Part shown: piece by piece, positions 24,771-61,437 of the stretch
Numbering within the stretch: the first letter of the stretch is position 1
Layout: each line of letters opens with the position of its first letter
IMG/VR virus record: IMGVR_UViG_3300033153_015063
Location: 1-64,000 of that record
Reading direction: 5' to 3' (one strand)
From: a virus
DNA: 64,000 nucleotides
Made by a program: the position numbers and the translations under genes
Notes under the pieces: model-generated
What the model was told of the DNA's origin: nothing
The model's input: only the letters and a program-made list of their open reading frames with translations
The model's database searches: none

Positions 24771-25017
24771 GTTGCATTTTTCTATCAATTATAATCATCA
24801 GTGAAACTGACGAGAACCCCCTTATCAACTTCGGTTATAATGTTGCATTTTTCTATCAATTATAATCATCAGTGAAACGTTACGGACCTTTGTGCTAAAG
24901 AGGTTAAGGTCATTGTTGCATTTTTCTATCAATCATAATCCTCAGTGAAGCCCTCAGTATGTAGGGTGAGCTCAAGAAGGCTGGAGTGGTTGTATTTTTC
25001 TATCAATCGTAATCATC
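24771..25017. CRISPR. mini-CRISPR array 1
   Basis: Three full 37-bp repeats at 24771-24807, 24842-24878 and 24915-24951, and a truncated one at 24989-25017. On the plus strand they begin gttgcatttttctatcaa and end cagtgaaac (the third ends gtgaagc). Spacers are 24808-24841 (34), 24879-24914 (36) and 24952-24988 (37). The last repeat overlaps the stop codon of the minus-strand exonuclease gene. The direction of transcription is not decided by the sequence. Confidence 0.9.
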
Positions 25018-25927
25018 AAAAGTCCAGAACGCTGGTGTTTTTATCTGTTTCTTTGCTTATTAGATTTTTCCAGTCTTCAGGATTTTTCAGGAACGACCTA
25101 AAATCCAGACCTTCGAGTAGACCAAAGAACTGGTCGAAGTCGGGCTCGCCCTGGTCTGGGATGGTAATACCCTGCTGTTCGGGGTACTCAGGAACCAGTG
25201 GAAGAGTAATGAGCTCGATGTTCCGTTTGATGAGCTCGATGTTATCAGGTTCATTGACCCGGGCCATCACCCCTTTCAATCCATCAAACGGTAGTGCTTT
25301 GACGCTGATAACCTTCTTAGCTATCTTAATGGCCCTCTTCTTCCCAATACCATTGACACCATCAATGTTATCAGATGGGTCCCCCATCATCGCCTTCATA
25401 AAAAGGAACTGTTCTTTTATATCTCTATACTCATCCGGGTAGTCTTTGAAGTCGTCGATGGTGAAGGGTTCTTTCCCCCTTGGGTTCCAGATGGTAATAA
25501 CATCGTCCACGAGCTGACGGAAATCCCTATCTGATGATACAATGACAATATTATCCTCAATCTTATCACAATACATATCTGTCATAATTGCTATGACATC
25601 GTCAGCTTCAACATCAGGATACCGGAGGTGAGGAATACCCAGGGCGTCGAGAATCCTGGTGAATATCTCAATCTGAGCATAAAAGGTTTTTTCCATGTCA
25701 ACGGATCGGTTGGCCCTGCTACTGGTTTTTTTGTAAGTAGGGTGTATCTCCAACCTACGCTTACTGATACCACCATCAAACACATAAACAACATCATGTC
25801 CAGGGAATTTAGTGATGGTGTTACGGAACATAGCCAGCATCGAGAAGACGGTCCCGTTGGTGAGTTTTTGGCCCATCGTACTGTGGGCCATCCAGGCCTG
25901 GTTATTACCATCAAAGATGATTACCAT
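25016..25927 (-). CDS. 5'-3' exonuclease, FEN/PolI 5'-nuclease family
   Basis: 303 residues. VIIFDGNNQAWMAHS supplies the first metal Asp; DVVYVFDGG, VEADDVIAIM and SSDRDFRQL supply further acidic ligands; MMGDPSDNIDGVNGIGKKRA is the helix-3-turn DNA-binding region. The length matches stand-alone T5/T4-type nucleases. It removes RNA primers and 5' flaps during replication. It ends NTSVLDF, the tail shared with methyltransferases here; cellular FEN1 also binds PCNA through a C-terminal peptide, so a clamp contact is likely. The start is just downstream of a TATAAA box near 25948. Confidence 0.92.
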   Translation of the reverse strand: MVIIFDGNNQAWMAHSTMGQKLTNGTVFSMLAMFRNTITKFPGHDVVYVFDGGISKRRLEIHPTYKKTSSRANRSVDMEKTFYAQIEIFTRILDALGIPHLRYPDVEADDVIAIMTDMYCDKIEDNIVIVSSDRDFRQLVDDVITIWNPRGKEPFTIDDFKDYPDEYRDIKEQFLFMKAMMGDPSDNIDGVNGIGKKRAIKIAKKVISVKALPFDGLKGVMARVNEPDNIELIKRNIELITLPLVPEYPEQQGITIPDQGEPDFDQFFGLLEGLDFRSFLKNPEDWKNLISKETDKNTSVLDF

Positions 25928-25963: not shown

Positions 25964-26464
25964 CTATCGTTTTTTATCTATTCGTCGGCGTGTCAAGCTT
26001 CTCGGTTTCAGGTCGGGTTCAAGTTCCCTGATAAGCACGTTCATCCTTTTCCCCTTCTCGGTGAGACCGCCCTGCCACACCCAATACCGCTCACCGCCAT
26101 GCGGGAACCTTCCTTCATCGGATTCCCAATCTACGAGTCCGTGCCGATACAGAACTGCCAACGTCCTGACGTTGAACAACTGCTGGTCGGTGGTCCCTAT
26201 TGTATGGATTGGTGCATTCGGATGAAGAGTCGAGAGCATGAGGACCCCTTCTTTCTGTGCATTCGAGAGTTTTCTGTATGTCTGGCGTAATTGTACGTCA
26301 AGCACGTCGATCCCCTTTATATCGTCACCAATCATCCCCTTCAAGAACTCCTCCTCCGAAAGCTCAGGTGCTTCTCCCACAGGCCCCTTGTAGACCGTAG
26401 ATCCACCTTCGTACTCGTACCTGTATTTATTCCCTGAACCCTCAGGTATCTCTACAGTGGTCAT
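25964..26464 (-). CDS. tagged winged-helix-like protein
   Basis: 166 residues from the ATG at 26464, 28 nt from a TATTTAAAG box. Tag at residues 1-45 (VEIPEGSGNKYRYEYE ... YKGPVGEAPELSEEEF). The cargo (LSNAQKEGVLMLSTL, then FNVRTLAVLYRHGLVDW and GGLTEKGKRMNVLI) looks like a MarR-type winged helix. Upstream DNA is identical to that of the tagged gene at 61437. Perhaps a DNA-binding regulator carried to the tag's destination. Confidence 0.8.
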   Translation of the reverse strand: MTTVEIPEGSGNKYRYEYEGGSTVYKGPVGEAPELSEEEFLKGMIGDDIKGIDVLDVQLRQTYRKLSNAQKEGVLMLSTLHPNAPIHTIGTTDQQLFNVRTLAVLYRHGLVDWESDEGRFPHGGERYWVWQGGLTEKGKRMNVLIRELEPDLKPRSLTRRRIDKKR

Positions 26465-26622
26465 TGGAGAGTGATAGGGCCGGAGAGTATTTAAAGAGTT
26501 CGGGAGGTTTATTACCACCGTCATCATCTATTGACCGCCACCGAAGTCAATCATACCAGTCAATGAAGGCACTATACACTTCCTCTCCATCTTCCTTTTT
26601 CATCAAAGTTAGACCACTTTGT

Positions 26623-27498
26623 TCAGAAATCCTCGGCTACATCGAATCTTTTCTTCTCCCGCATCTCCAGTGAATCTGCACGTTCTGTAAAGACAACATT
26701 CCCACCGACCTTCTCTCTGATAATAGTCCGTAGGTTCTTATCCACATCATAGCCTATCCCCTGCCGATCCAGGTCCCTGGCGACCGCCAACGTCGTCCCG
26801 GACCCGCAGAAAGGGTCCAGAACTACCTCGTTTTTGTGTGAAAACAGCGTTATCAGGCGAAAGGGTATCTCCGGGGGAAAGGCTGCGATATCCTCTTCTA
26901 AACGCCCCGGAATGGGCAAAACATTGGTGATGTCCCAGACGTTCAGATACCACTTCTCGGACTGGAACCGTTCCAGGTCAATCCCGGAGAGATTCTTCAG
27001 GTCCTTCGAGACCGCCTTGTGATTGTGCTTCCCCTTTTGCCAGATGAGAATAGATTCCTGGATGTTGTCGGGATAGTAGTACATGGGATATGGATGCTGC
27101 ACTACGACGCCAGAACGTCTACTGGTTCTGATGTACCCTTCGGGCTTTCTCCAGACGATACGGTCTCTGTAGATCCACTTCAGATCCGCCTGGTCATGCA
27201 GCTCCAGAGAAGAATTAATTATCGACCTGGTGTTCATCCACAAGTCAGATACGATGGGATACTTGACCCCATCTACTATGATATCGTCTATGACGATGCA
27301 GGCGATACGTCCCCTCTTCAGAACCCTGTGCATCTCCTTTAGGACCCGTGTCATAAACGAGAGATAGGTGCCATAGTTTTCGAAGAGACCTGGGTAGTCG
27401 AACGGAGCGTTGTAGTAAGGCGGAGAGGTCACAATGAGGTCCACACTCTCATCCTTGATTTCTTCCATGTTTTCACATGACCCAAAAATAACCTTCAT
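26623..27498 (-). CDS. DNA methyltransferase, beta-class, SPPY
   Basis: 291 residues. Catalytic TSPPYYNAPFDYPGL near residue 30, motif I DPFCGSGTTLAVARDLDRQ near 235. The S/TSPPY form is usual in N4-cytosine enzymes, so m4C is the likelier product. No endonuclease partner lies nearby, so it is an orphan, perhaps for self-protection against host restriction. It ends DVAEDF, a weaker version of the V[LM][DEN]F tail. Confidence 0.9.
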   Translation of the reverse strand: MKVIFGSCENMEEIKDESVDLIVTSPPYYNAPFDYPGLFENYGTYLSFMTRVLKEMHRVLKRGRIACIVIDDIIVDGVKYPIVSDLWMNTRSIINSSLELHDQADLKWIYRDRIVWRKPEGYIRTSRRSGVVVQHPYPMYYYPDNIQESILIWQKGKHNHKAVSKDLKNLSGIDLERFQSEKWYLNVWDITNVLPIPGRLEEDIAAFPPEIPFRLITLFSHKNEVVLDPFCGSGTTLAVARDLDRQGIGYDVDKNLRTIIREKVGGNVVFTERADSLEMREKKRFDVAEDF

Positions 27499-28003: not shown

Positions 28004-28443
28004 GTTACATTTTTCTATCAGTCATCAATGGAACCGTTCTCCACAAGTCCCTATTGTTACATTTTTCTATCAATCATAATCCTCAGCGAAACGGACGTCT
28101 AACAATGAGTCGTAGAGAGTACAATGATCGTTGCATTTTTCTATCAATTATAATCCTCAGTGAAACATGGCATGGCTGTCGCTGAAGGGAGAGATGCTTA
28201 TTATAATCCTCAGTGAAACCAGTACAAAGTGAAGAAGAAGAGAGGCTTTTGCTGCTTCGTTGCATTTTTCTATCAATCATAATCCTCAGTGAAACAAAAT
28301 GCGTTGAGAGAGTTGGGGATACCATTTCGTATGTTGCATTTTTCTATCAATTATAATCCTCAGTGAAACTACTCCATGTTGACGGTCCACATCCAGGTAT
28401 TTGTGTGTTGCATTTTTCTATCAATCATAATCCTCAGTGAAAC
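28004..28443. CRISPR. mini-CRISPR array 2, abutting the Cas12/TnpB-like gene
   Basis: Five full 37-bp repeats (28056-28092, 28130-28166, 28259-28295, 28333-28369, 28407-28443), a degenerate one (28004-28034) and a half repeat (28200-28219). Most begin gttgcatttttctatcaa and end cctcagtgaaac; two leftmost copies begin gttacat. Intact spacers are 37-39 bp. The rightmost repeat ends 1 bp from the stop of the minus-strand Cas12/TnpB-like gene. In minus orientation the repeat reads GTTTCACTGAGG ... AAAATGCAAC, with a 3' end like some type V-F repeats. Confidence 0.92.
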
Positions 28444-28444
28444 C

Positions 28445-30166
28445 CTACTTTTTCACTCTATGTAGGGTCCCTTTCGCCTTTTTTAGGAGCTCAGTTGTCT
28501 GCTTCAACCTCTCCGTTCTGTTCTTAACTCTGTCGCTCATAATAAGGTCACGGTTTTCAACCAACACCCCGGCGAAATGAGCTGCGTTGGTAGCTGCGTT
28601 CCGGTCAGCGTTGAGTTGGCGGCCGCAGTCACCACATCTGAACCATGAGTGCCAGTGTTCCCAGAAGACGCCAGATTTCCCTACATCTCCATGTTTACCC
28701 CACCCACCACACACTGAACACCGTTTGCAAGCCAGCGTCAAAGGAATCTTCTGGATAACGATGTTGGGAATCTCTCTCAGCTTATATGTGAGTTGCCAAT
28801 CTACGATATGGAAAGGCCACCTATTGGCCATCCTCCTGATAAAGTCCGGTAGGAGTTCCTCCTCGCAACCTACCATGTTTTCCAATCTACCAGCTTTGTC
28901 CCTACTTCCGGTGAAATCGTGGATGCAGACCAGGATGTTCCCGCCGAGTTCTTTGAGTTTGTTGGCAATCATCCTGGTTGCGTTGTGTAGCTCGTGCCTT
29001 AGAACCAACGACGCTTTTGTGAGATAAATAGATGCCTTCTTATACTTGATAGAAAGGTTCTTTTTTGTTATCGGGCGTTGATCTTTTCCACGACGGGTTG
29101 CCTTGGATTGTCTTTCCGCATACTTATCGTCACTTGACTTCCAGTCACGAAGCATTTTCTTTCCTTTATGTATGTAATGAAACAACTCTCGGCCAGTTCT
29201 GGCATCCAACACAACCAACGACATTGGACGATAGATACCACCATGAACACCAACAATATAGTCTATTTCATCTTTTTTGTAATCATAAACGTCCACATCA
29301 ACGGATAGTGTGATGTGAAGCCACCACTTACCATCCTTTGGTATCAAAGTCCCTGAACCATGTTTCAGGATCGCTTCAAGTGTAAGCTCGCACCATCCCT
29401 CCTGATAGTGTTTCTTACCGAACTCTTTCAACACCCCGGATCGGTCCCTGATTTGTGATGACTCTACCTGGGCTGAAAAAATACCATTACGATTTATTAC
29501 TCCAACACTAAAGACAATCCCAAAATTATTACCGTTTTTCTTAATTTTGATGGACCTGTTATGCAGTTCAATAACATTATACTTTTCATAGCTTGGTCTG
29601 TTCTTGTTATTGACGGGTTTCCTTGGCCCTTTTTTGGTTGATGTTCTGTTCATAATCTCATCAACCAACTTTGTTTTAATATCTGGGATCTGTTTTCTGG
29701 CTATTTTAAGTAGGATTTTTCTATACTCTCCTATTTCCTTTTTGTATTTCTTATTTCCCTTTTTTCTGGGGTAAGCCGGTGGATTGGCTACTTGACTGGT
29801 CAACCATGGCCACCATAACTTATATTTGTTGAGTAGAACATAGCTATCGGTACGCCAGAGACGGCTTATCCAATTGGACAATGAGGAACGAAAGTTGGCC
29901 AGAACAACCGATACCTGTTCCTGAACAGTAGTTGATGAAAGTAGTGTGGTATTGATTTTCTGATCTTTATTAATTCCTTGAGAAAGACGTAGAATATGTG
30001 GCGGGAGTTTAGGAGACTTAGGAATCTTACTGCCTTTGTAGTAAGATGGTATCATAATTGATGCATAGTCAGCTACATCTCTGGCCTGCCCAAGGGCCAC
30101 AAACAGACGTTCAGAGTCCTCTTTCTTGAACGTCAATGGGACCTGGATTGTTCTGATTGATTTCAT
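28445..30166 (-). CDS. TnpB/Cas12-like protein with altered RuvC site
   Basis: 573 residues from the ATG at 30166; a longer frame would read through a strong hairpin. The N-terminal 250 residues resemble the wedge and helical parts of TnpB/small Cas12. RuvC-I reads YIVGVHGGIYRP, with His308 where Asp is expected. RuvC-II reads LVCIHDFTGSR, with His416 where Glu is expected. A zinc finger (CKRCSVCGG ... CGDCGRQLNADRNAA) follows, with Asp521 of RuvC-III intact. Two of three catalytic acids are lost, so RNA-guided binding without cutting is likely, as in Cas12m, Cas12k and TldR proteins. CRISPR array 2 starts 1 bp after the stop. No transposase or transposon ends are seen. Confidence 0.85.
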   Translation of the reverse strand: MKSIRTIQVPLTFKKEDSERLFVALGQARDVADYASIMIPSYYKGSKIPKSPKLPPHILRLSQGINKDQKINTTLLSSTTVQEQVSVVLANFRSSLSNWISRLWRTDSYVLLNKYKLWWPWLTSQVANPPAYPRKKGNKKYKKEIGEYRKILLKIARKQIPDIKTKLVDEIMNRTSTKKGPRKPVNNKNRPSYEKYNVIELHNRSIKIKKNGNNFGIVFSVGVINRNGIFSAQVESSQIRDRSGVLKEFGKKHYQEGWCELTLEAILKHGSGTLIPKDGKWWLHITLSVDVDVYDYKKDEIDYIVGVHGGIYRPMSLVVLDARTGRELFHYIHKGKKMLRDWKSSDDKYAERQSKATRRGKDQRPITKKNLSIKYKKASIYLTKASLVLRHELHNATRMIANKLKELGGNILVCIHDFTGSRDKAGRLENMVGCEEELLPDFIRRMANRWPFHIVDWQLTYKLREIPNIVIQKIPLTLACKRCSVCGGWGKHGDVGKSGVFWEHWHSWFRCGDCGRQLNADRNAATNAAHFAGVLVENRDLIMSDRVKNRTERLKQTTELLKKAKGTLHRVKK

Positions 30167-30180
30167 GTGACAGTAAGTGT

Positions 30181-30420
30181 GGGGGGCAAAAGCCCCCCTT
30201 GATAGATTTCGACCGCCCCGCACTTTTCCCCTAACTCCGAAGAGATTGGTGACTTATGTACAGTTGGATAGCAGTACTCTGGGCCCAAACTGATGCACAG
30301 CCTGGGGGAACATACAACAGTCCCTGTTACCGGCGGTACGCAACCCCGGATTTCCGGTCTGGGAATCGAACCCAGCCTGGTTGGCCCAATTGACAACCAG
30401 TTCCAACATCCGAACATCTG
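30181..30420 (-). ncRNA. candidate structured RNA upstream of the Cas12/TnpB-like gene
   Basis: No protein fits here. A TATA box (gtttataaac, about 30442-30451) would start a minus-strand RNA near 30420. It could fold into CTGGTTG/CAACCAG and CTGGG-TTCGATT-CCCAG hairpins enclosed by CGGAT/ATCCG, followed by AACAG/CTGTT. A perfect hairpin with 7-bp GGGGGGC/GCCCCCC arms (30181-30198) ends the region 15 bp before the gene. TCTATCAA (minus strand, 30199-30206) is complementary to 8 nt of the minus-sense CRISPR repeat, so a tracrRNA or guide-scaffold role is possible. Folding was done by eye. Confidence 0.45.
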
Positions 30421-30452
30421 GTACTTGATAGCGAGGAATGTGTTTATAAACA

Positions 30453-32136: not shown

Positions 32137-32925
32137 CTAAAATTCCAGTACGTCATAGTTATTGAAGAACCTCTCAAAGTCAGGATTCACCTCATACCCG
32201 ATAGACCTACGGCCCATCCGTCGTGCAACTCTGGTTGTTGTGCCAGTCCCGAGAAAAGGGTCCATCACTACCTCGGTAAGATAGGAAAAGCCCCTGATGA
32301 TACGTATTGGGATCTCCTTTGGAAAAGGGGCAGGATGGTCACGGTTTCCACTTGGAGCTGGCTTTATCTTCCAGACCGAGCTCTTCTTTATCTCCACCCA
32401 CTGGTCCTTACTGAGCTTCGAGGCTTCCTTTATCTCGCCAGAGAGATGAGATAGGTCACGCTTCCCAGATTTCTCAAATTCAAGGATAAATTCATGCATG
32501 AAATTGATTGGAAGGGCCCCTGGATAGGGGTAAGATCCGATAGGAGACTGAACAGAATTGGCCTTCTCCCAGATGATCTCTCGCTTGAACGCAAACCCCA
32601 ACCCCACACAATCGTCGATGGTCCAGCCGACCAGATTGATGGAGTGGAACAATTGCTTATCAGAGGCCGGGACAGGCAGGTTCATCAGATTGACAAACAT
32701 CTTACGCCCAGGGGCAAGTACACGGAGGCACTCTTTCCATACGTCTCTCATTTTGAGACGCCATGAATCTGGATTGGTCGTGTTACCGAGGTCGTCTGGT
32801 AGATTTGAGTATTTCTTTGCGTTGTAGTATGGCGGGCTGGTCACCACGAGATGAACAGAACAATCATCCACCTCGGACATATCCCTCGAATCTCTGACGT
32901 GATAGATAGGCTCAAAAAACTCCAT
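32137..32925 (-). CDS. DNA methyltransferase, beta-class, SPPY
   Basis: 262 residues from the ATG at 32925, overlapping the upstream gene by 14 bp. VTSPPYYNAKKYSNL is the catalytic motif; MDPFLGTGTTTRVARRMGRR is motif I, with GTG replacing the usual GSG. N4-cytosine specificity is likely from SPPY. It ends NNYDVLEF, the shared C-terminal peptide. Confidence 0.9.
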   Translation of the reverse strand: MEFFEPIYHVRDSRDMSEVDDCSVHLVVTSPPYYNAKKYSNLPDDLGNTTNPDSWRLKMRDVWKECLRVLAPGRKMFVNLMNLPVPASDKQLFHSINLVGWTIDDCVGLGFAFKREIIWEKANSVQSPIGSYPYPGALPINFMHEFILEFEKSGKRDLSHLSGEIKEASKLSKDQWVEIKKSSVWKIKPAPSGNRDHPAPFPKEIPIRIIRGFSYLTEVVMDPFLGTGTTTRVARRMGRRSIGYEVNPDFERFFNNYDVLEF

Positions 32926-33289
32926 CTGTCTCACTGTGATAATCACATTCCCGTGAACAATATTCATCATCGTCGTAACAGAGTTTGTTGCATCCATTCC
33001 CCTGACATCTACCAGTAGGTTCGAAATCTTCTTCTTCTGTATCTATGTAGTCGATGATTGGGCATAACCACTGGTTGGCAGTTGGGTCAACTATCTCGCC
33101 ATCTGGAGTAGTAAGCCACCAATGATCTTCCAGTAGTTTTGGTCGGGCGGCTAGGGTAACAAAACCACTACAGAGTCTGAGTTCAGGAAAGATATCGTTC
33201 ATCTCTATACAGAGTTCTTTACACCTGTTAATCTTTTTTTCAAGTGTCGTTTTCTCAATCCACTCTTCGTAGATAGGTGACAAACTCAT
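32912..33289 (-). CDS. transglutaminase-like protein with zinc tail
   Basis: 125 residues, ATG at 33289, 26 nt from a TTTAAAAAG box. LRLCSGFVTL, then EDHWWLTTPDGEIVDPTANQW give the Cys-His-Asp set of small transglutaminase-fold proteins. A C-terminal CQGNGCNKLCYDDDEYCSREC zinc cluster is added. Third protein of this type in the window. Confidence 0.65.
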   Translation of the reverse strand: MSLSPIYEEWIEKTTLEKKINRCKELCIEMNDIFPELRLCSGFVTLAARPKLLEDHWWLTTPDGEIVDPTANQWLCPIIDYIDTEEEDFEPTGRCQGNGCNKLCYDDDEYCSRECDYHSETDGVF

Positions 33290-33603: not shown

Positions 33604-33872
33604 TTTGGTTCCCATCCTAACAGTTCAGCGAAAGTCTTGATAAGTTTATAGTCGTCTTCGTTTATCTCCATCCAGTACACCCAGAAGGATTCATGGTCGT
33701 ACAAATACATTCTATCGTCATCGGCACACACTTCCAGGTCAGCCAGTCCTTTATCTTTATCGGGGTCTCGAACAATTATCATTTTATCAATATGTTTCGT
33801 TTCCACCATTTTTTCACCTTCAAAAGTCCATGATTGTGCATCCTTCTGATACATCCACTCTAACCGTAGCAT
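33600..33872 (-). CDS. protein of unknown function (90 aa)
   Basis: Acidic alpha/beta protein (DKMIIVRDPDKDKGLADLEV, then a Tyr/Trp-rich stretch). TAATG with the upstream methyltransferase fragment and ATGA with DUF4326 mark an operon. Confidence 0.65.
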   Translation of the reverse strand: MLRLEWMYQKDAQSWTFEGEKMVETKHIDKMIIVRDPDKDKGLADLEVCADDDRMYLYDHESFWVYWMEINEDDYKLIKTFAELLGWEPK

Positions 33873-34207
33873 TACTTATTACTACCACTATTCAGACCGC
33901 CATTTTTAATATATATCATTGTATCGAATAGCCTGAAACCTATATCCTTGAAGAATAATGCCTGCCGAAAACTTGTTCCTGTTTCGCTACCATCTACAGT
34001 GGCGTCACCCACGACCCAGACAACCACGCCGCCCTTTTTTGTTACTCGAAACAGTTCTTCTGCTACGTTCTTAAAGTCGAAGTTGTAGCCATCATACTCT
34101 CTGAGGTCATCGTATGGTGGACTTGTCACGGTCAGATCCACAAAGTTATCTGGCATACCCGCCATTGTAATCAAGCAGTCTTCATTGTATATCATATTCA
34201 TTTCCAT
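33872..34207 (-). CDS. truncated DNA methyltransferase (N-terminal part only)
   Basis: 111 residues from the ATG at 34207 (34201 is an alternative). MNMIYNEDCLITMAGMPDNF and TSPPYDDLREYDGYNFDF match a common phage methyltransferase family, and VGDATVDGSETGTSFRQAL also fits it. The frame stops at NGGLNSGSNK, before the target-recognition part and the AdoMet motif, which full-length relatives carry over about 150 more residues. No C-half lies downstream. Probably a decayed enzyme, or one chain of a split protein whose partner is elsewhere. Confidence 0.75.
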   Translation of the reverse strand: MEMNMIYNEDCLITMAGMPDNFVDLTVTSPPYDDLREYDGYNFDFKNVAEELFRVTKKGGVVVWVVGDATVDGSETGTSFRQALFFKDIGFRLFDTMIYIKNGGLNSGSNK

Positions 34208-34691
34208 CTTCTTTCTCCAGATTTTCCAGTAGCTTTTCTGCATCCTTCTTCAATCGGTCCAATTCCTCCAGAACCTCATCACGTAGTGAACCATCATTGT
34301 TACGGACCTTTCCACCACGCCTCAGACAAGCCCAGTTACGTCGGAGGTCCTCTCTCTTTGACCAGACCCGCCATCTCAACGCTTTGTACCCTTCCCAAAA
34401 CATAGTGGCGTTCGACGGCCTGTAGTTGTTGTTCATTTTGGGCGGCCTATAGTAGAACTCTTCAAGGTCATAGATGTTTGAGTAGTAGAGAAGCGTCTGA
34501 ACGGAATGGGGGACCTTCATGGCCGTATGGTACTCCCATCCATTTGCTTCCATCAGATACTTGGTCTCTGATGCACAACAGAATCCTGTGGTCATCAGCT
34601 CGTAGACCAACAACCGTGCTGCGGCCTCGTTGGCACCAATGTTGTTCCGCCTGCCGCCCCCTGTTCCCTTTTGCTGTCCTGAAGTCAACAT
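34182..34691 (-). CDS. basic helical protein of unknown function
   Basis: 169 residues, Arg-rich middle (RRNWACLRRGGKVRN) and a C-terminal coiled coil (LEELDRLKKDAEKLLENLEK). TATA is tttaaata near 34714. No family recognised. Confidence 0.65.
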   Translation of the reverse strand: MLTSGQQKGTGGGRRNNIGANEAAARLLVYELMTTGFCCASETKYLMEANGWEYHTAMKVPHSVQTLLYYSNIYDLEEFYYRPPKMNNNYRPSNATMFWEGYKALRWRVWSKREDLRRNWACLRRGGKVRNNDGSLRDEVLEELDRLKKDAEKLLENLEKEDGNEYDIQ

Positions 34692-35815: not shown

Positions 35816-37084
35816 TCAGAAATCCATCACATCGCTTTTTACCATGATACTACCATCTTCGTCTATAGGAACCATTTCGCCTATCCTTTTCATAGCAATG
35901 TCATAGTAACGTTTTTCCCTCTCAAAACCAATATAATCCCTACCACATCTGGCTGCTGCGATAGCTGTAGTGCCCGACCCCATGAATGGGTCCAGGATGA
36001 TACCTCCACTTGGAGTTGCTGTGAGTCTGCAAAGATATTCTATCAACTCCAATGGTTTTACAGTTTCATGGTCGTTGTACTCACATCGTTCTGACCTCGA
36101 TGCTTTAGCACAGTAAAAAAATCTTGAAGGTCGGTCATCATTACCAACCTCATTGTCCAATAAATTACCTACATCCTCATCCAATATGAGATTGGCCGGA
36201 TAACGCCCTTTTGGATTATGGCGTTCCTCACCTAGATTTCGTGGTGGGGTCTTACCTTTACCCCATATCCCAGCACCAGGGACACTGGTCCTCCGTTCGC
36301 TATCTAGAACCTTACTCTCTATCCTCGCACCGTCGATGTTCAATCCGGCCACACCCCATTTCAAAGCATTCTCAACAAAGGTTCCATCGAGAGGTTTCAT
36401 AGCAACGAGGATGGTTTCCCATGCTGGTTTGAGTGAACTCCTCCAACCATCCCATATCTTTGCCTCCTCAGTCGCTGGAGTGGTAATATTGATCTCTCGT
36501 CTGCCAGCTTTCCAACCACCAGGAGCTTCATAGCCGCCATCCTTCTGGTTGATAAATATCCTTGCTCGCTTTTCATCGACACCAACGACCTCCCTCTCGG
36601 CTCCGGCGGCCTTGTCAATTCCCTTCGAGATATCGGTTCCCTTACCCCAACCCGACCCATACAACCACATCATTGTATCTCTAATTATCCATCCAGCATC
36701 CTCGATGGCACAGGCCAACCGATGCCAAGTTCTGGTACCAGAAAAAGCGAGAAAGAAAGCTCCTGGTTTTGCTACTCTTAAAGCCTCTACGGACCACTTA
36801 TAGTGCCACTCGTAAAGTTTTTGCATTTGTTTAATATGATTATGAGAACCGCCAAATTTTGGTGATGGTAAGTGCCTCGGCCATTTAATTCGCCTTTCTC
36901 CTATACCTGGTTTTTGAAATGGCTGAACGTCGCCTTCTTTCCAAGGCGAGTCCCACTCTGACATAAACGATAATCCATAAGGTGGATCTGTGATGATGGT
37001 ATCAATGCAATTATCAGGAAGATGCACAGGCATACCAACCAGGCAATCCTCGTTGTAGATGATGTCGGTTTCAATCTCGTCCAT
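35816..37084 (-). CDS. DNA methyltransferase, beta-class, DPPY, intact
   Basis: 422 residues. NEDCLVGMPVHLPDNCIDTI and TDPPYGLSFMSEWDSPWKEG at the N-terminus; AdoMet motif DPFMGSGTTAIAAARCGRD at the C-terminus, about 370; target-recognition region between. It is the uninterrupted version of the split gene at 2537-5006, with the first 110 bp identical. DPPY suggests N6-adenine. It ends KSDVMDF. Confidence 0.92.
   Translation of the reverse strand: MDEIETDIIYNEDCLVGMPVHLPDNCIDTIITDPPYGLSFMSEWDSPWKEGDVQPFQKPGIGERRIKWPRHLPSPKFGGSHNHIKQMQKLYEWHYKWSVEALRVAKPGAFFLAFSGTRTWHRLACAIEDAGWIIRDTMMWLYGSGWGKGTDISKGIDKAAGAEREVVGVDEKRARIFINQKDGGYEAPGGWKAGRREINITTPATEEAKIWDGWRSSLKPAWETILVAMKPLDGTFVENALKWGVAGLNIDGARIESKVLDSERRTSVPGAGIWGKGKTPPRNLGEERHNPKGRYPANLILDEDVGNLLDNEVGNDDRPSRFFYCAKASRSERCEYNDHETVKPLELIEYLCRLTATPSGGIILDPFMGSGTTAIAAARCGRDYIGFEREKRYYDIAMKRIGEMVPIDEDGSIMVKSDVMDF
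36962..37071. repeat. 110-bp exact duplicate shared with 4887-4996
   Basis: Partner of the stretch in the split methyltransferase gene; identical by eye over 110 bp with abrupt ends. Confidence 0.9.
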
Positions 37085-37096
37085 CTCGTTTCACCC

Positions 37097-38326
37097 TCAG
37101 AAATCCATCACGCTACTATCTCTCAACAAACCTTCGGTCTCGGCCCTGTCTATAGCCATCCTCACGTACTTCTCTGAAGTATCGCACCCCAACCAATCCC
37201 TACCCTCCTGGGTAGATACAACGGCTGTGGTCCCACTTCCCATGAAAGGGTCGAGAACGACACCGTCCGATGGGCAACATGCCTTGATGATTGGCCTGAT
37301 GAGCTCCTGTGGAAACACGGCATGATGGGCCTGCTTGAAGGGTTTGGTATTCTGTAAGATTGATACCACCCCATTCTCATCGTCCAATGCCCCATACTTC
37401 CCCATGTCATATCTGGCAGTAGATAACTCGTGTAGTAGTGTCTCCAGATTCTCTATGATGACGTCAATGGAATCTGAGTACCAGTCAATGGTTCTACGGT
37501 AGTGCCCCTGTTCTCTGATTGCTTCCCGATCATAGTAGTAGGATTCCTGCTTCGTGAGTACAAGGAAATATTCGTGTGCGATAGTAGGGCGATCCTTGGC
37601 GGATTCTGGCCGGATATTCCATTTCAACCATGGTACGACGGCCCGCCAATACCACCCAGCAGCCTGGAGAGACATTGCCAGACGCCAGGGGATACCAACC
37701 AAATCCTTCGGTTTTACACCCTCTGGGACCCTCACGGACATCCAGTTACCAACGTCCCCTACCTTCCCATCGACCTGTCCCCATGTCCTGTTTGCAGCGT
37801 ATGTATCACCGATATTCAGCCACAGAGACCCGGTGTCTTTGAGTACCCGCCAGTATTTCCCGAACACTGACGTCAGGTTGGAAACGTAGATGTTGGGTTC
37901 TGGTTCCAGACCAAGATGCCCCTTCCAAGCATCACACCATTTACAGTAGTATGACGTATATCCCTCGCCTCTGATGACACTCTCGCTCATCACCCGGTTC
38001 GCACCTACAGAAGAAGGTCGGTCAGGGTGGTTTTTACCACCCCTCGCAGGTGTAAAATGTTCCATCCACTCATGGGTACATTCATAGGGTTCCAAATCGT
38101 AACATTCTTTGTTCTGGGGATGGTAACAAAGTAACTCTTCACCATCACTGACCTGTTTACATTGCGGGCATCTCCGAAACCTTTTCCCACCCCACACCTC
38201 GGCTTTACCTAGATACTCTCTCAACATCCAGAATGGTGGTGATGTGACTATCAGGTCTACTATCCCATCTGGTAGAGTGTCGGCATACTCCATCGTATTC
38301 GATAAAGCGACTGTGTTGAGTGCCAC
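37097..38326 (-). CDS. DNA methyltransferase with zinc insert, SPPF
   Basis: 409 residues from a GTG at 38326, exactly 26 nt from TATA tttataaag; a longer frame would cross the promoter. VTSPPFWMLREYLG is the catalytic motif; DPFMGSGTTAVVSTQEGRD is motif I near the end. A cysteine insert (CPQCKQV ... CHPQNKEC, later CKWC) forms probable zinc sites between them. It ends SSVMDF. A 53-bp piece is duplicated at 34758. Confidence 0.88.
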   Translation of the reverse strand: MALNTVALSNTMEYADTLPDGIVDLIVTSPPFWMLREYLGKAEVWGGKRFRRCPQCKQVSDGEELLCYHPQNKECYDLEPYECTHEWMEHFTPARGGKNHPDRPSSVGANRVMSESVIRGEGYTSYYCKWCDAWKGHLGLEPEPNIYVSNLTSVFGKYWRVLKDTGSLWLNIGDTYAANRTWGQVDGKVGDVGNWMSVRVPEGVKPKDLVGIPWRLAMSLQAAGWYWRAVVPWLKWNIRPESAKDRPTIAHEYFLVLTKQESYYYDREAIREQGHYRRTIDWYSDSIDVIIENLETLLHELSTARYDMGKYGALDDENGVVSILQNTKPFKQAHHAVFPQELIRPIIKACCPSDGVVLDPFMGSGTTAVVSTQEGRDWLGCDTSEKYVRMAIDRAETEGLLRDSSVMDF

Positions 38327-38392
38327 TATCGAGAAATGGCCGCCCGTCTTTATAAAGAGTTTGAAAGCGTTCTGGAACTCCTTCATTTCCAG

Positions 38393-38578
38393 AACTCATT
38401 TTTCTATCAATCATAATTCTCAGTGAAACTGGCACAACGTCAATACTACCGTTCTACAACGACATTTGTTGCATTTTTCTATCAATTATAATCCTCAGTG
38501 AAACAAGGTGGGGTGGGCAAGACACTAAACCATCTATCTGTTTATGCTTTATGCCAGTTGCATTTTCTGGGTGTGAAC
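38393..38578. CRISPR. mini-CRISPR array 3
   Basis: A repeat with altered first bases (38393-38429), a full repeat (38468-38504) and a repeat start without the rest (38557-38578). The spacer 38430-38467 is 38 bp; the segment 38505-38556 is 52 bp and begins with a sequence that encodes GGVGKTLNHLS. The array lies 11 bp after the stop of the minus-strand gene at 38590. Confidence 0.85.
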
Positions 38579-38589
38579 ATGTTATTAAT

Positions 38590-39120
38590 TTACTCCCACG
38601 TTGCCTCCAGCTCACTCTTTATATCATCCCACTCAGCCATGTCATGGGTACTGTGGGATTGCCAACACCTCGACCCATCTTCTCCAATGTCGACGAGTAA
38701 TCCTTTGTTCTCCAGTAACGTGGAAATAGTACTGACACGTTCCATGCTAATACCGATATTTTCCCCTATTGTATCTTCATAGGCGGCGTAGGATTTGAAC
38801 ACGAACATAAGCACCTTCAACTCATCTGAATGCTCTTGTTCCTCTATCTCATACCTTACACGTGTAAAGGCTTCACTTCTCATTTTTGTTATTTTATCTC
38901 CATCTCTCAGGAAGTAAATCCTCGTCGTTCTTTTTCCCACTATCGGGTCCTTGACAGCATACACCTCTCTGTCAGTTTGTCTATTGTTCTCTGACAACAT
39001 TTTATTATCATGCTGAAGACAGCATTTAACGGCACCTTGCATTGTATTGTGGACCTTTTTGCACCAACCATCACGTTTACCGAGACAGACAAATCCAGAT
39101 TTCCTTCCTCTCTTACCCAT
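38590..39120 (-). CDS. winged-helix-like protein
   Basis: 176 residues from the ATG at 39120 with a GGTGAG site. A basic, cysteine-containing N-terminus (KSGFVCLGKRDGWCKKVH), then a helical part and a C-terminal winged-helix-like segment (SYAAYEDTIGENIGISMERV, then STLLENKGLLVDIG). Possibly a transcription regulator. It ends in front of array 3. Confidence 0.65.
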   Translation of the reverse strand: MGKRGRKSGFVCLGKRDGWCKKVHNTMQGAVKCCLQHDNKMLSENNRQTDREVYAVKDPIVGKRTTRIYFLRDGDKITKMRSEAFTRVRYEIEEQEHSDELKVLMFVFKSYAAYEDTIGENIGISMERVSTISTLLENKGLLVDIGEDGSRCWQSHSTHDMAEWDDIKSELEATWE

Positions 39121-39125
39121 ATCAC

Positions 39126-39851
39126 TCACCGATTAATTTTTTCGGACCTTCCCTCATTTTTCTTTGCGAGTTTGTTGATGGCCCACTGATATTCACAACC
39201 AGGACACTCAACATACAACCACTGACGTTGTGGAAAACCATCTACACATTGGCCGTCGGAGTGGTCATAGTACTTGAGTCGGTGGAAATCGAGCTCTGTG
39301 CCACAAGTTGGGCAATCTGGAGATTGAGTACGTTTCAATTCCTCAATCCAACCATCAAGAGTTAAATCGTATTTGGGAATTATAATATGTGGTTCAAAAA
39401 TATCAGTCTCTGGGAGACCCCTGACCGGCCCCTTGTACACGGTCTTGCCGCCTTCGTAGACGTATTTGTAGCGGTTACCTGAACCTGGGGGAATTTCAAT
39501 TACAGTCGTCCCTCTACATTTTATCTTTCTACATTTTTTGAGTATATAATCATTGATAACTCTATCCATCTGCCCCCTTGTATAACCATCGAGTGAGTCC
39601 CAGTCAACAGATATAAACACGACATCACTACTCATAACTTCATAATGTGTTTTACATAAGGGGCACCATTTTATTTTGCCTCTACTCCTTTGTTCACCAC
39701 ATGTATGTTTATGGTCAAATATTACTTTGTCAAATATCTTACAGAAAACGTCAGATGGGGCTGGATTTTTATGTTTCCGGTGCTTGGTCCATTGCTGAAA
39801 AAACAACGGAAGATTGAACTCATCAAGAGTGAATGTTAGATTCATCGGCAT
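39126..39851 (-). CDS. protein with internal tag domain and zinc ribbons
   Basis: 241 residues. Residues 1-115 hold a zinc site (CGEQRSRGKIKWCPLCKTH). The tag occupies about 116-150 (VIEIPPGSGNRYKYVYE ... YKGPVRGLPE) and has R in place of the usual G after GPV. A C-terminal ribbon follows (CPTCG...CPGCEYQW). This is the only internal placement. Confidence 0.8.
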   Translation of the reverse strand: MPMNLTFTLDEFNLPLFFQQWTKHRKHKNPAPSDVFCKIFDKVIFDHKHTCGEQRSRGKIKWCPLCKTHYEVMSSDVVFISVDWDSLDGYTRGQMDRVINDYILKKCRKIKCRGTTVIEIPPGSGNRYKYVYEGGKTVYKGPVRGLPETDIFEPHIIIPKYDLTLDGWIEELKRTQSPDCPTCGTELDFHRLKYYDHSDGQCVDGFPQRQWLYVECPGCEYQWAINKLAKKNEGRSEKINR

Positions 39852-57501: not shown

Positions 57502-57930
57502 CTATGAAGATGAAAGATGCTCTTTGATAGATTCAACGTGGATTTCTTTTTCCTGAAGGGCCGATAGACGTGGAGGGATACGATAAGCAACCTTAATAGG
57601 TCGAATTTTTTTCAATCGTGTAAAATTCCTTTTGAAGTCGCCCTTGACCAGATCCCCATTTTTATCATACCCCCAGATAAGGAGTTTCGAAGGGTCAGGG
57701 TGCCTGTTCTCCTTATCGACATAGACGATGATTGGGTCGCTCCAGAGGTTCTCCTGATACTCGTATGCCAACAGGGTAGCCTCGCCCCTTCCCTTTCCTA
57801 TAACATTCAAGAACTCCTCTTCTCCCATCTCAGGGGCCGTGCCGACCGGCCCCTTGTACTGTGTCTTGCCGCCTTCATATTCGTAGCGGTATCTATTCCC
57901 TGAACCTGGAGGGATTTCGACGACGGTCAT
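57502..57930 (-). CDS. tagged protein, small cargo
   Basis: 142 residues. Tag at 1-45 (TVVEIPPGSGNRYRYEYE ... YKGPVGTAPEMGEEEF). The cargo is a beta-rich stretch (DPIIVYVDKENRHPD, LLIWGYDKNGDLVKGDF) followed by a basic helix. Not recognised. TATA tatttaaag 26 nt upstream. Confidence 0.8.
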   Translation of the reverse strand: MTVVEIPPGSGNRYRYEYEGGKTQYKGPVGTAPEMGEEEFLNVIGKGRGEATLLAYEYQENLWSDPIIVYVDKENRHPDPSKLLIWGYDKNGDLVKGDFKRNFTRLKKIRPIKVAYRIPPRLSALQEKEIHVESIKEHLSSS

Positions 57931-61005: not shown

Positions 61006-61437
61006 TTAATCCATCAAGTAAAGTCTGGACCTGAGGTCATTGACAAACACTTCAGGATTTCTTTCGATGAAAGTGGGCCAATCAGGAGTATCACTACTCT
61101 GGCCGTGACTCATGGCATAGTAGATGGCCTTTCTTCTCTTATCACTGGATGTATCTGGACCGATAATACGGGCAAGTGAGAACAACTCATCCATGGCCAT
61201 CGCTTCAGTTCCCATCCATCTATCAGTTTCGATGACCTGGCCGTTGACGATGTATGGCCTGATATCGTATTGTACCTCAACAACATTCTCGGCTGGAGAG
61301 ATAGTCATGGCGTAGATAAACTCCCCCTCGCTCATCTCAGGAGAATCCCCGACCGGCCCCTTGTAGACCGTAGCTCCCTCTTCATATTCATAGCGGTATC
61401 TGTTACCTGAGCCAGGAGGGATTTCGACGGTGGTCAT
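61006..61437 (-). CDS. tagged protein, unknown cargo
   Basis: 143 residues. Tag at 1-45 (TVEIPPGSGNRYRYEYE ... YKGPVGDSPEMSEGEF). The cargo is helical (AMAMDELFSLARIIGPDTSS). Upstream DNA matches the tagged gene at 26464. Not recognised. Confidence 0.8.
   Translation of the reverse strand: MTTVEIPPGSGNRYRYEYEEGATVYKGPVGDSPEMSEGEFIYAMTISPAENVVEVQYDIRPYIVNGQVIETDRWMGTEAMAMDELFSLARIIGPDTSSDKRRKAIYYAMSHGQSSDTPDWPTFIERNPEVFVNDLRSRLYLMD

What the first reader, a model, noticed from the sequence alone, without database searches (positions are those of the whole stretch)
28445..30166. Cas12/TnpB-like protein with both RuvC-I Asp and RuvC-II Glu changed to His
GVHGG and CIHDF occupy the RuvC-I and RuvC-II positions, while the zinc finger and NADRNAA (RuvC-III Asp) stay normal. 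The frame is intact and abuts a CRISPR array. A nuclease-dead, RNA-guided binder on a mobile element would silence genes of rivals or host. Two independent His substitutions are also unusual and could form a new metal site.
Basis: partly seen in the sequence, partly recalled or inferred. Interest (0 to 1): 0.9.

Follow-up and report, generated by a model that had tools for sequence, protein, structure and literature searches.

The report
Nuclease-dead viral CRISPR protein with scattered arrays
A 242-kb virus-like DNA element, probably of archaea, carries a small CRISPR (Cas12-type) protein whose DNA-cutting site has been replaced by two histidines, plus several short guide arrays, one guide of which matches a replication-region gene of the element's own kind, so it most likely blocks related elements by binding their DNA instead of cutting it.

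Summary
The 573-codon gene (28445-30166, minus strand) encodes a TnpB/Cas12f-superfamily protein. Asp in RuvC-I is replaced by His308, Glu in RuvC-II by His416; RuvC-III Asp521 and the four zinc-finger Cys are kept. Column alignments, two profile alignments and an AlphaFold model agree. No relative collected here has His at either site. The first CRISPR repeat starts one base after the stop codon.

Loss of DNA cleavage is the best prediction: Cas12m2, with His at the first site (HDD), binds DNA without cutting. Dead Cas12 effectors on phages and plasmids are already known, so this is a new variant (HHD) on a very long branch, not a new kind.

Beyond the finding: the record is a 242,596-base IMG/VR entry with archaeal-type replication genes. 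It carries four small arrays of one repeat, each just 3' of a minus-strand gene; Cas1 was not found. One spacer matches the element's own replication-region gene at 30/33 bases with only synonymous differences, and sits behind the only internal repeat that has lost its 3' end. This suggests conflict with a close relative. Nothing was tested biochemically; no close homologue was found.

The parts
28445..30166 (-). cas12-like gene, 573 aa, Cas12f/TnpB superfamily with HHD in place of the DED RuvC triad
   Evidence: Open frame; Pfam Cas12f1-like_TNB 6.9e-8; PADLOC Cas12u3 5e-13 and Cas12f 1.1e-11; NCBIfam Cas12f2 1.2e-10; Foldseek to AsCas12f1 1.7e-15
29243..29245 (-). codon of His308 (CAT) at the RuvC-I Asp position
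28919..28921 (-). codon of His416 (CAC) at the RuvC-II Glu position; at least two base changes from any Glu codon
28604..28606 (-). codon of Asp521, the retained RuvC-III Asp (NADRNAA)
28625..28720 (-). TNB zinc finger C483/C486 ... C511/C514, with a longer loop than in relatives
28004..28443 (-). CRISPR array B: five full 37-nt repeats, one internal repeat without its 3' half (28200-28219) and one truncated terminal repeat (28004); six spacers; first repeat starts 1 nt after the stop codon
28167..28199 (-). spacer B4: 30/33 match to G000:229630-229662; all three differences synonymous (MAWLSLKGEML, 11/11) in a 345-aa replication-region ORF
   Evidence: best of 200 shuffles 24/33
28200..28219 (-). 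internal repeat that has lost its 17-nt 3' half (the presumed crRNA handle), directly 5' of spacer B4
24771..25009 (-). CRISPR array A (three full repeats plus one degenerate), directly 3' of the 5'-3' exonuclease gene 25016-25927
38393..38504 (-). CRISPR array C (one full repeat plus one degenerate, one spacer), 3' of gene 38590-39129
30167..30452 (-). non-coding leader upstream of the gene, with a TATA-like TTTATAAA at its 5' end and a GC hairpin before the ATG; possible site of a tracrRNA, not shown
   Evidence: coding score about 0; fold z-score -1.22, not significant

Best explanation
This is a virus-borne (or large-element-borne), naturally nuclease-dead type V effector of the TnpB/Cas12f superfamily. 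Small arrays placed at the 3' ends of the element's own minus-strand genes are transcribed with those genes and give crRNAs. The Cas12-like protein binds crRNA, probably with help from a second RNA, and sits on matching DNA of competing, related elements, where it blocks transcription or replication without cutting. Shown here: the HHD substitutions, the intact frame, the array anatomy, and the synonymous self-like match of spacer B4. Inferred: expression, RNA and DNA binding, loss of cleavage, and block of rival elements.
For: H308 and H416 replace two catalytic ligands that are conserved as D and E in all 17 relatives of A3; the register is confirmed by two profile alignments and the model. 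In a wider set of 39 relatives (partly overlapping A3) the columns are 37 D, 38 E and 38 D, with no His. The frame is intact and coding, and the protein is strongly basic (108 K+R against 55 D+E). The array follows the gene on the same strand, and four arrays of one repeat are present. Spacer B4 matches the element's own replication-region ORF at 30/33 with only synonymous changes, so it was most likely taken from a relative's copy of that gene. B4 is also the only spacer behind an internal repeat without its 3' half. Cas1 was not found, as in almost all phage CRISPR systems (PMC7162821). Precedents: Cas12m2, HDD, blocks transcription without cutting (PMC10442227, PMC11013384); a huge-phage dCas14 (PMC7162821); archaeal virus mini-arrays that target close relatives, with point mutations in the carrier's own copy (PMC6858448).
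Against: There is no expression or binding evidence. There is no close homologue, so purifying selection on the HHD state cannot be measured. Eleven of 12 spacers have no target in anything searched. No tracrRNA was established. The link between B4 and the broken repeat is one case (about 1 in 11 by chance). Changed residues do not prove how the protein works: some Cas12m with a full DED triad also do not cut (PMC11013384).
Confidence: 0.6

Rival explanations
1. Decaying relic: a former Cas12f nuclease has lost its active site and no longer has a function; the degenerate repeats are part of the same decay.
For: Very long branch (terminal length 3.7-4.5 changes per site); several repeats degenerate or truncated; several otherwise near-invariant residues in the C-terminal region are changed.
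Against: 573 codons with no stop or frameshift and in-frame codon usage; zinc-finger Cys and Asp521 kept; most repeats identical; four arrays kept.
Confidence: 0.13
2. RNA-guided regulator of the element's own or the host's genes, TldR-like, rather than a weapon against rivals.
For: A dead effector with guides on viral DNA is the TldR pattern (PMC13418256); one spacer matches the element's own gene.
Against: The only self-like match has three mismatches and its guide has lost the repeat 3' half; no other self match; arrays with several spacers, whereas TldR uses a single guide (own knowledge).
Confidence: 0.1
3. Decoy or anti-CRISPR: the dead protein or its solitary repeats sequester host Cas components or crRNAs, as proposed for a phage Cas9 with an inactivated RuvC domain.
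For: Precedent for inactivated phage Cas9 (PMC12669027, PMC11656645); degenerate isolated repeats at 38393 and 145662.
Against: No host array with this repeat was found; arrays with several spacers argue for guide use.
Confidence: 0.08
4. Still catalytic: HHD binds another metal and cuts DNA or RNA, or trims its own guide RNA.
For: Two His and one Asp can bind transition metals (general knowledge); in Cas12m2 His317 and Asp579 hold one Mg (PMC10442227).
Against: Two-metal catalysis needs ligands that are missing; Cas12m2 with one His does not cut.
Confidence: 0.07

Closest known systems
Type V-F Cas12f (AsCas12f1, Un1Cas12f1) and phage-borne Cas12f
   Same: Fold and TNB zinc finger (Foldseek 1.7e-15); array just 3' of the gene on the same strand, repeat beginning GTTTC as in viral Cas12f loci L051/L052; repeat unstructured on its own.
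   Different: HHD instead of DED; about 150 residues longer; about 20% identity; falls outside the Cas12f group on a very long branch; no tracrRNA shown.
Type V-M Cas12m (MmCas12m2, HDD; also HEK, HQK, NDD)
   Same: His at the RuvC-I position, Asp at RuvC-III, similar size (596 aa), found on mobile elements; predicted binding without cutting (PMC10442227, PMC11013384).
   Different: His instead of Asp at RuvC-II; weaker structural match (1.3e-8); CCCC rather than HCCC zinc finger; repeat not self-folding; no sequence hit to a Cas12m chain or model.
Huge-phage dCas14 (Al-Shayeb et al. 2020, PMC7162821)
   Same: Inactivated V-F-like effector on a >200-kb virus with compact arrays; almost all such phage systems lack Cas1.
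   Different: That one lacks one catalytic residue and has a spacer against a host gene; here two residues are His and the only target clue is a related element.
[quoted passage not shown] 2019, PMC6858448)
   Same: Small virus-borne arrays in intergenic regions; spacers against close relatives, with point changes in the carrier's own copy.
   Different: SPV arrays have no cas genes and probably borrow the host's; here an effector gene is present.
TldR (TnpB-derived dead repressors)
   Same: RuvC-inactivated TnpB-superfamily protein on phage DNA.
   Different: TldR uses one adjacent guide and no CRISPR array.

Membership tests
TnpB/Cas12 superfamily | RuvC (RNase H fold) motifs with TNB zinc finger between RuvC-II and RuvC-III | tested here: met
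   Pfam PF07282 over its cut-off; AF2 secondary structure and Foldseek
Nuclease-active RuvC (DED) | Asp, Glu, Asp at the three ligand positions | tested here: not met
   H308, H416, D521
Type V-F (Cas12f) | Effector closest to Cas12f in profile, structure and tree | tested here: inconclusive
   Best PDB folds are Cas12f, but the alignment given to AF2 was Cas12f/TnpB-rich; hhalign scores for Cas12f and TnpB sets are equal (1e-14 and 2e-14); tree places it outside both; below NCBIfam cut-offs
Type V-F (Cas12f) | tracrRNA plus crRNA guide | tested here: inconclusive
   Only one long anti-repeat in the record, 19 nt at G000:145662-145680, about 115 kb away; leader 30167-30452 not significantly structured
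Type V-M (Cas12m) | Sequence match to Cas12m | tested here: inconclusive
   No Cas12m/V-U1 model hit in PADLOC or NCBIfam at E<=1, but I did not verify that these libraries hold one; phmmer finds no Cas12m PDB chain; fold match weaker than Cas12f
Type V-M (Cas12m) | Structured repeat, single crRNA | tested here: not met
   Repeat folds at 0 kcal/mol in gene sense
Type V-M (Cas12m) | His at RuvC-I (clades 1 and 2) | tested here: met
   H308; clade list from PMC10442227
TldR | Dead TnpB with a single adjacent guide RNA, no CRISPR array | tested here: not met
   Array of several repeats directly downstream
CRISPR array | Regular conserved repeats with unique spacers | tested here: met
   37-nt repeats, mostly 37-nt spacers, in four places
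Complete adaptive CRISPR-Cas | Cas1 adaptation module | tested here: not met
   No PF01867 match in the record; the record may be incomplete
RNA-guided DNA binder without cleavage | Guide-dependent binding, no cutting | not testable with these tools
   Needs biochemistry

The most novel reading that the evidence does not exclude
The H308-H416-D521 site is a 2-His-1-carboxylate metal centre in an RNase H fold that binds a transition metal and uses it to lock the displaced DNA strand or to do a chemistry other than two-metal hydrolysis, in a separate type V lineage peculiar to large archaeal elements.
Probability: 0.06. Interest if true: 0.85.

Novelty: new variant of a known kind. Interest (0 to 1): 0.5.

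Why it matters
It would add an HHD class to the naturally dead Cas12 effectors and place one, with its own dispersed arrays, on a large archaeal-type element. The synonymous near-match of one spacer, and the loss of that guide's repeat end, make virus-against-virus silencing by a non-cutting effector directly testable. It also offers a compact natural binder with a possible new metal site.

Tried and rejected
1) RuvC-II at RLENMVG (E429): appeared in one 5-sequence alignment; rejected because two profile alignments and the model place the strand and EDL motif at CIHDF. A later 40-sequence MAFFT alignment gapped this region in all other rows and so was not used for RuvC-II of this protein.
2) Second TnpB-like hit in the record at 159899: an unrelated zinc-ribbon protein.
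3) tracrRNA in the leader 30167-30452: only an 8-nt complement, expected about 0.1 by chance (own estimate), and fold z-score -1.22; not claimed.
4) Host array with the same repeat: none in genome contigs or viral contigs.
5) Related viruses via the B4 target gene, its peptide pattern, or the recurrent N-terminal tag: none.
6) Spacer targets in phages and plasmids: only chance-level hits or none.
7) Halobacteriota and DPANN-related genomes: no close protein relative.
8) Tree placement: long branch, not interpretable beyond 'outside the sampled groups'.
9) Second structure job not used: coordinates are not returned, so ligand distances could not be measured.

Full report
The reading frame is real. 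Minus-strand 30166-28445 is open for 573 codons and its codon usage scores as coding in this frame only. Curated libraries place it in the TnpB/Cas12 superfamily: Pfam Cas12f1-like_TNB 6.9e-8, over its cut-off; PADLOC Cas12u3 5e-13 and Cas12f 1.1e-11; NCBIfam Cas12f2 1.2e-10 and TnpB 1.7e-7, both below their curated cut-offs. V-U2 to V-U4 effectors are now counted under V-F (PMC11013384).

The substitutions are real. In an 18-sequence alignment every other member has Asp, Glu and Asp where this protein has His308, His416 and Asp521. Two profile alignments, to a Cas12f set and to a TnpB set, give the same register. The AlphaFold model has mean pLDDT 59 overall and 78-85 in the ten-residue blocks around the three sites; it puts H308 at the end of the first RuvC strand, H416 in the RuvC-II strand and D521 at the start of the last helix. 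Foldseek against the PDB gives AsCas12f1 first (1.7e-15), a dCas12f at 1.9e-9 and Cas12m2 at 1.3e-8. The model was built from a Cas12f/TnpB alignment, so this ranking is not independent. In a wider set of 39 relatives, partly the same sequences, no His occurs at any of the three sites; three viral ones are DEN, DRD and NED. One search pattern that fetched these required Glu at RuvC-II, so the counts are biased towards it. Loss of single ligands therefore recurs in viral Cas12f-like proteins; double His was seen only here.

His at the first position has a precedent. Cas12m2 has His317, Asp485 and Asp579, binds one magnesium through His317 and Asp579, does not cut DNA and silences by binding (PMC10442227). 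Other Cas12m are HEK or HQK (same paper). RuvC inactivation has happened repeatedly in type V (PMC12669027), and a huge-phage Cas14 lacking one catalytic residue was reported in 2020 (PMC7162821). What is new is the HHD combination and the context.

The surroundings. The window belongs to a 242,596-base IMG/VR record. It has a family-B DNA polymerase, replication factor C subunits, gyrase, topoisomerase and class II ribonucleotide reductase and AT-rich TATA-like elements (for example AAAGTATATAAAG near 145.5 kb). I infer an archaeal host. I found no capsid or terminase among the proteins checked, so 'virus' rests on the IMG/VR classification.

The same 37-nt repeat occurs in four small arrays: 24771-25009, 28004-28443, 38393-38504 and 207888 to about 208060 of the record. 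Each begins within about 90 bases of the stop codon of a minus-strand gene, and the array after the cas gene begins one base after its stop. In gene sense the repeat is GTTTCACTGAGGATTATGATTGATAGAAAAATGCAAC. It begins with GTTTC like the repeats 3' of viral Cas12f genes L051 and L052, and its ATGCAAC end resembles the Un1Cas12f1 repeat end (from memory, a lead and not a test). It does not fold on its own. Outside the arrays the only long complement to the repeat is 19 exact bases at 145662-145680 (-), three bases after the stop of an AAA ATPase gene. It could be an anti-repeat of a second RNA or an inverted relic. No Cas1 was found.

Targets. Of 12 spacers, one (B4, 28167-28199) matches another place in the record: 30 of 33 bases at 229630-229662, against at most 24 in 200 shuffles. 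All three differences are synonymous in a 345-aa minus-strand ORF that lies between an AAA ATPase gene and a large 813-aa ORF that I read as helicase/primase-like (no family hit); the encoded peptide MAWLSLKGEML is identical. The simplest reading is that the spacer was taken from a relative's copy of the same gene. The repeat in front of B4, in gene sense, has lost its 17-nt 3' half, and it is the only internal repeat to have done so. If crRNAs are read in gene sense, B4 would make no normal crRNA, which would spare the element from its own guide. This is one case and could be chance (about 1 in 11). In the archaeal viruses SPV1 and SPV2, virus-borne spacers target close relatives and the carriers' own copies bear point mutations or deletions (PMC6858448); Chiyouvirus carries exact self-matching spacers of unknown role (PMC10848311). 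The other spacers had no meaningful match in the own record, phages or plasmids.

Relatives. No close homologue was found in phages, plasmids, viral contigs, species genomes, 394 genomes of the Halobacteriota-type phylum or 87 genomes of the phylum of a Diapherotrites genome. Pattern-based scans need short near-exact peptides, so distant members may be missed. In a tree the protein is a branch of 3.7-4.5 changes per site outside both the Cas12f and TnpB groups, so I do not file it as V-F or V-M.

Mechanism. I think it is a crRNA-guided DNA binder that blocks related elements, in the manner of Cas12m, with about 0.6 confidence. The sequence facts are shown; guide loading, DNA binding, loss of cleavage and the target are inferred. 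The most novel reading not excluded is a 2-His-1-carboxylate metal site with its own role.

Noticed in passing
33 ORFs across G000, e.g. window 57502-57930, 61006-61437, 25964-26527: A recurrent N-terminal tag of about 35 residues (VEIPPGSGNRYRYEYEGGKTVYKGPVGxAPELSEEEF) heads at least 33 otherwise different proteins of the record; one member has no Pfam hit and no relative in viral contigs. It may be a targeting or packaging tag.
   Followed up: partly
G000:145662-145680 (-): A 19-nt exact inverted half-repeat three bases after the stop codon of an AAA_5 ATPase gene; the only long anti-repeat outside the arrays, possibly part of a tracrRNA.
   Followed up: partly
window 30340-30400 (-): tRNA-like T-arm (CTGGGTTCGATTCCCAG) in the non-coding leader upstream of the cas gene, not called by ARAGORN or Rfam.
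   Followed up: no
L066, L068, L072: Viral Cas12f-like proteins with other single changes of the RuvC triad: DEN, DRD and NED.
   Followed up: no
window 26623-27498, 32137-32997, 33872-34243, 35816-37084, 37097-38386: Several DNA-methyltransferase-like genes (judged from TSPPY/DPPYG-type motifs) cluster in the window, one short and fragment-like (33872-34243).
   Followed up: no
G000:172573-174225 and 198301-200313: A TROVE/Ro60-like protein and a CobT-like VWA protein on the same element.
   Followed up: no
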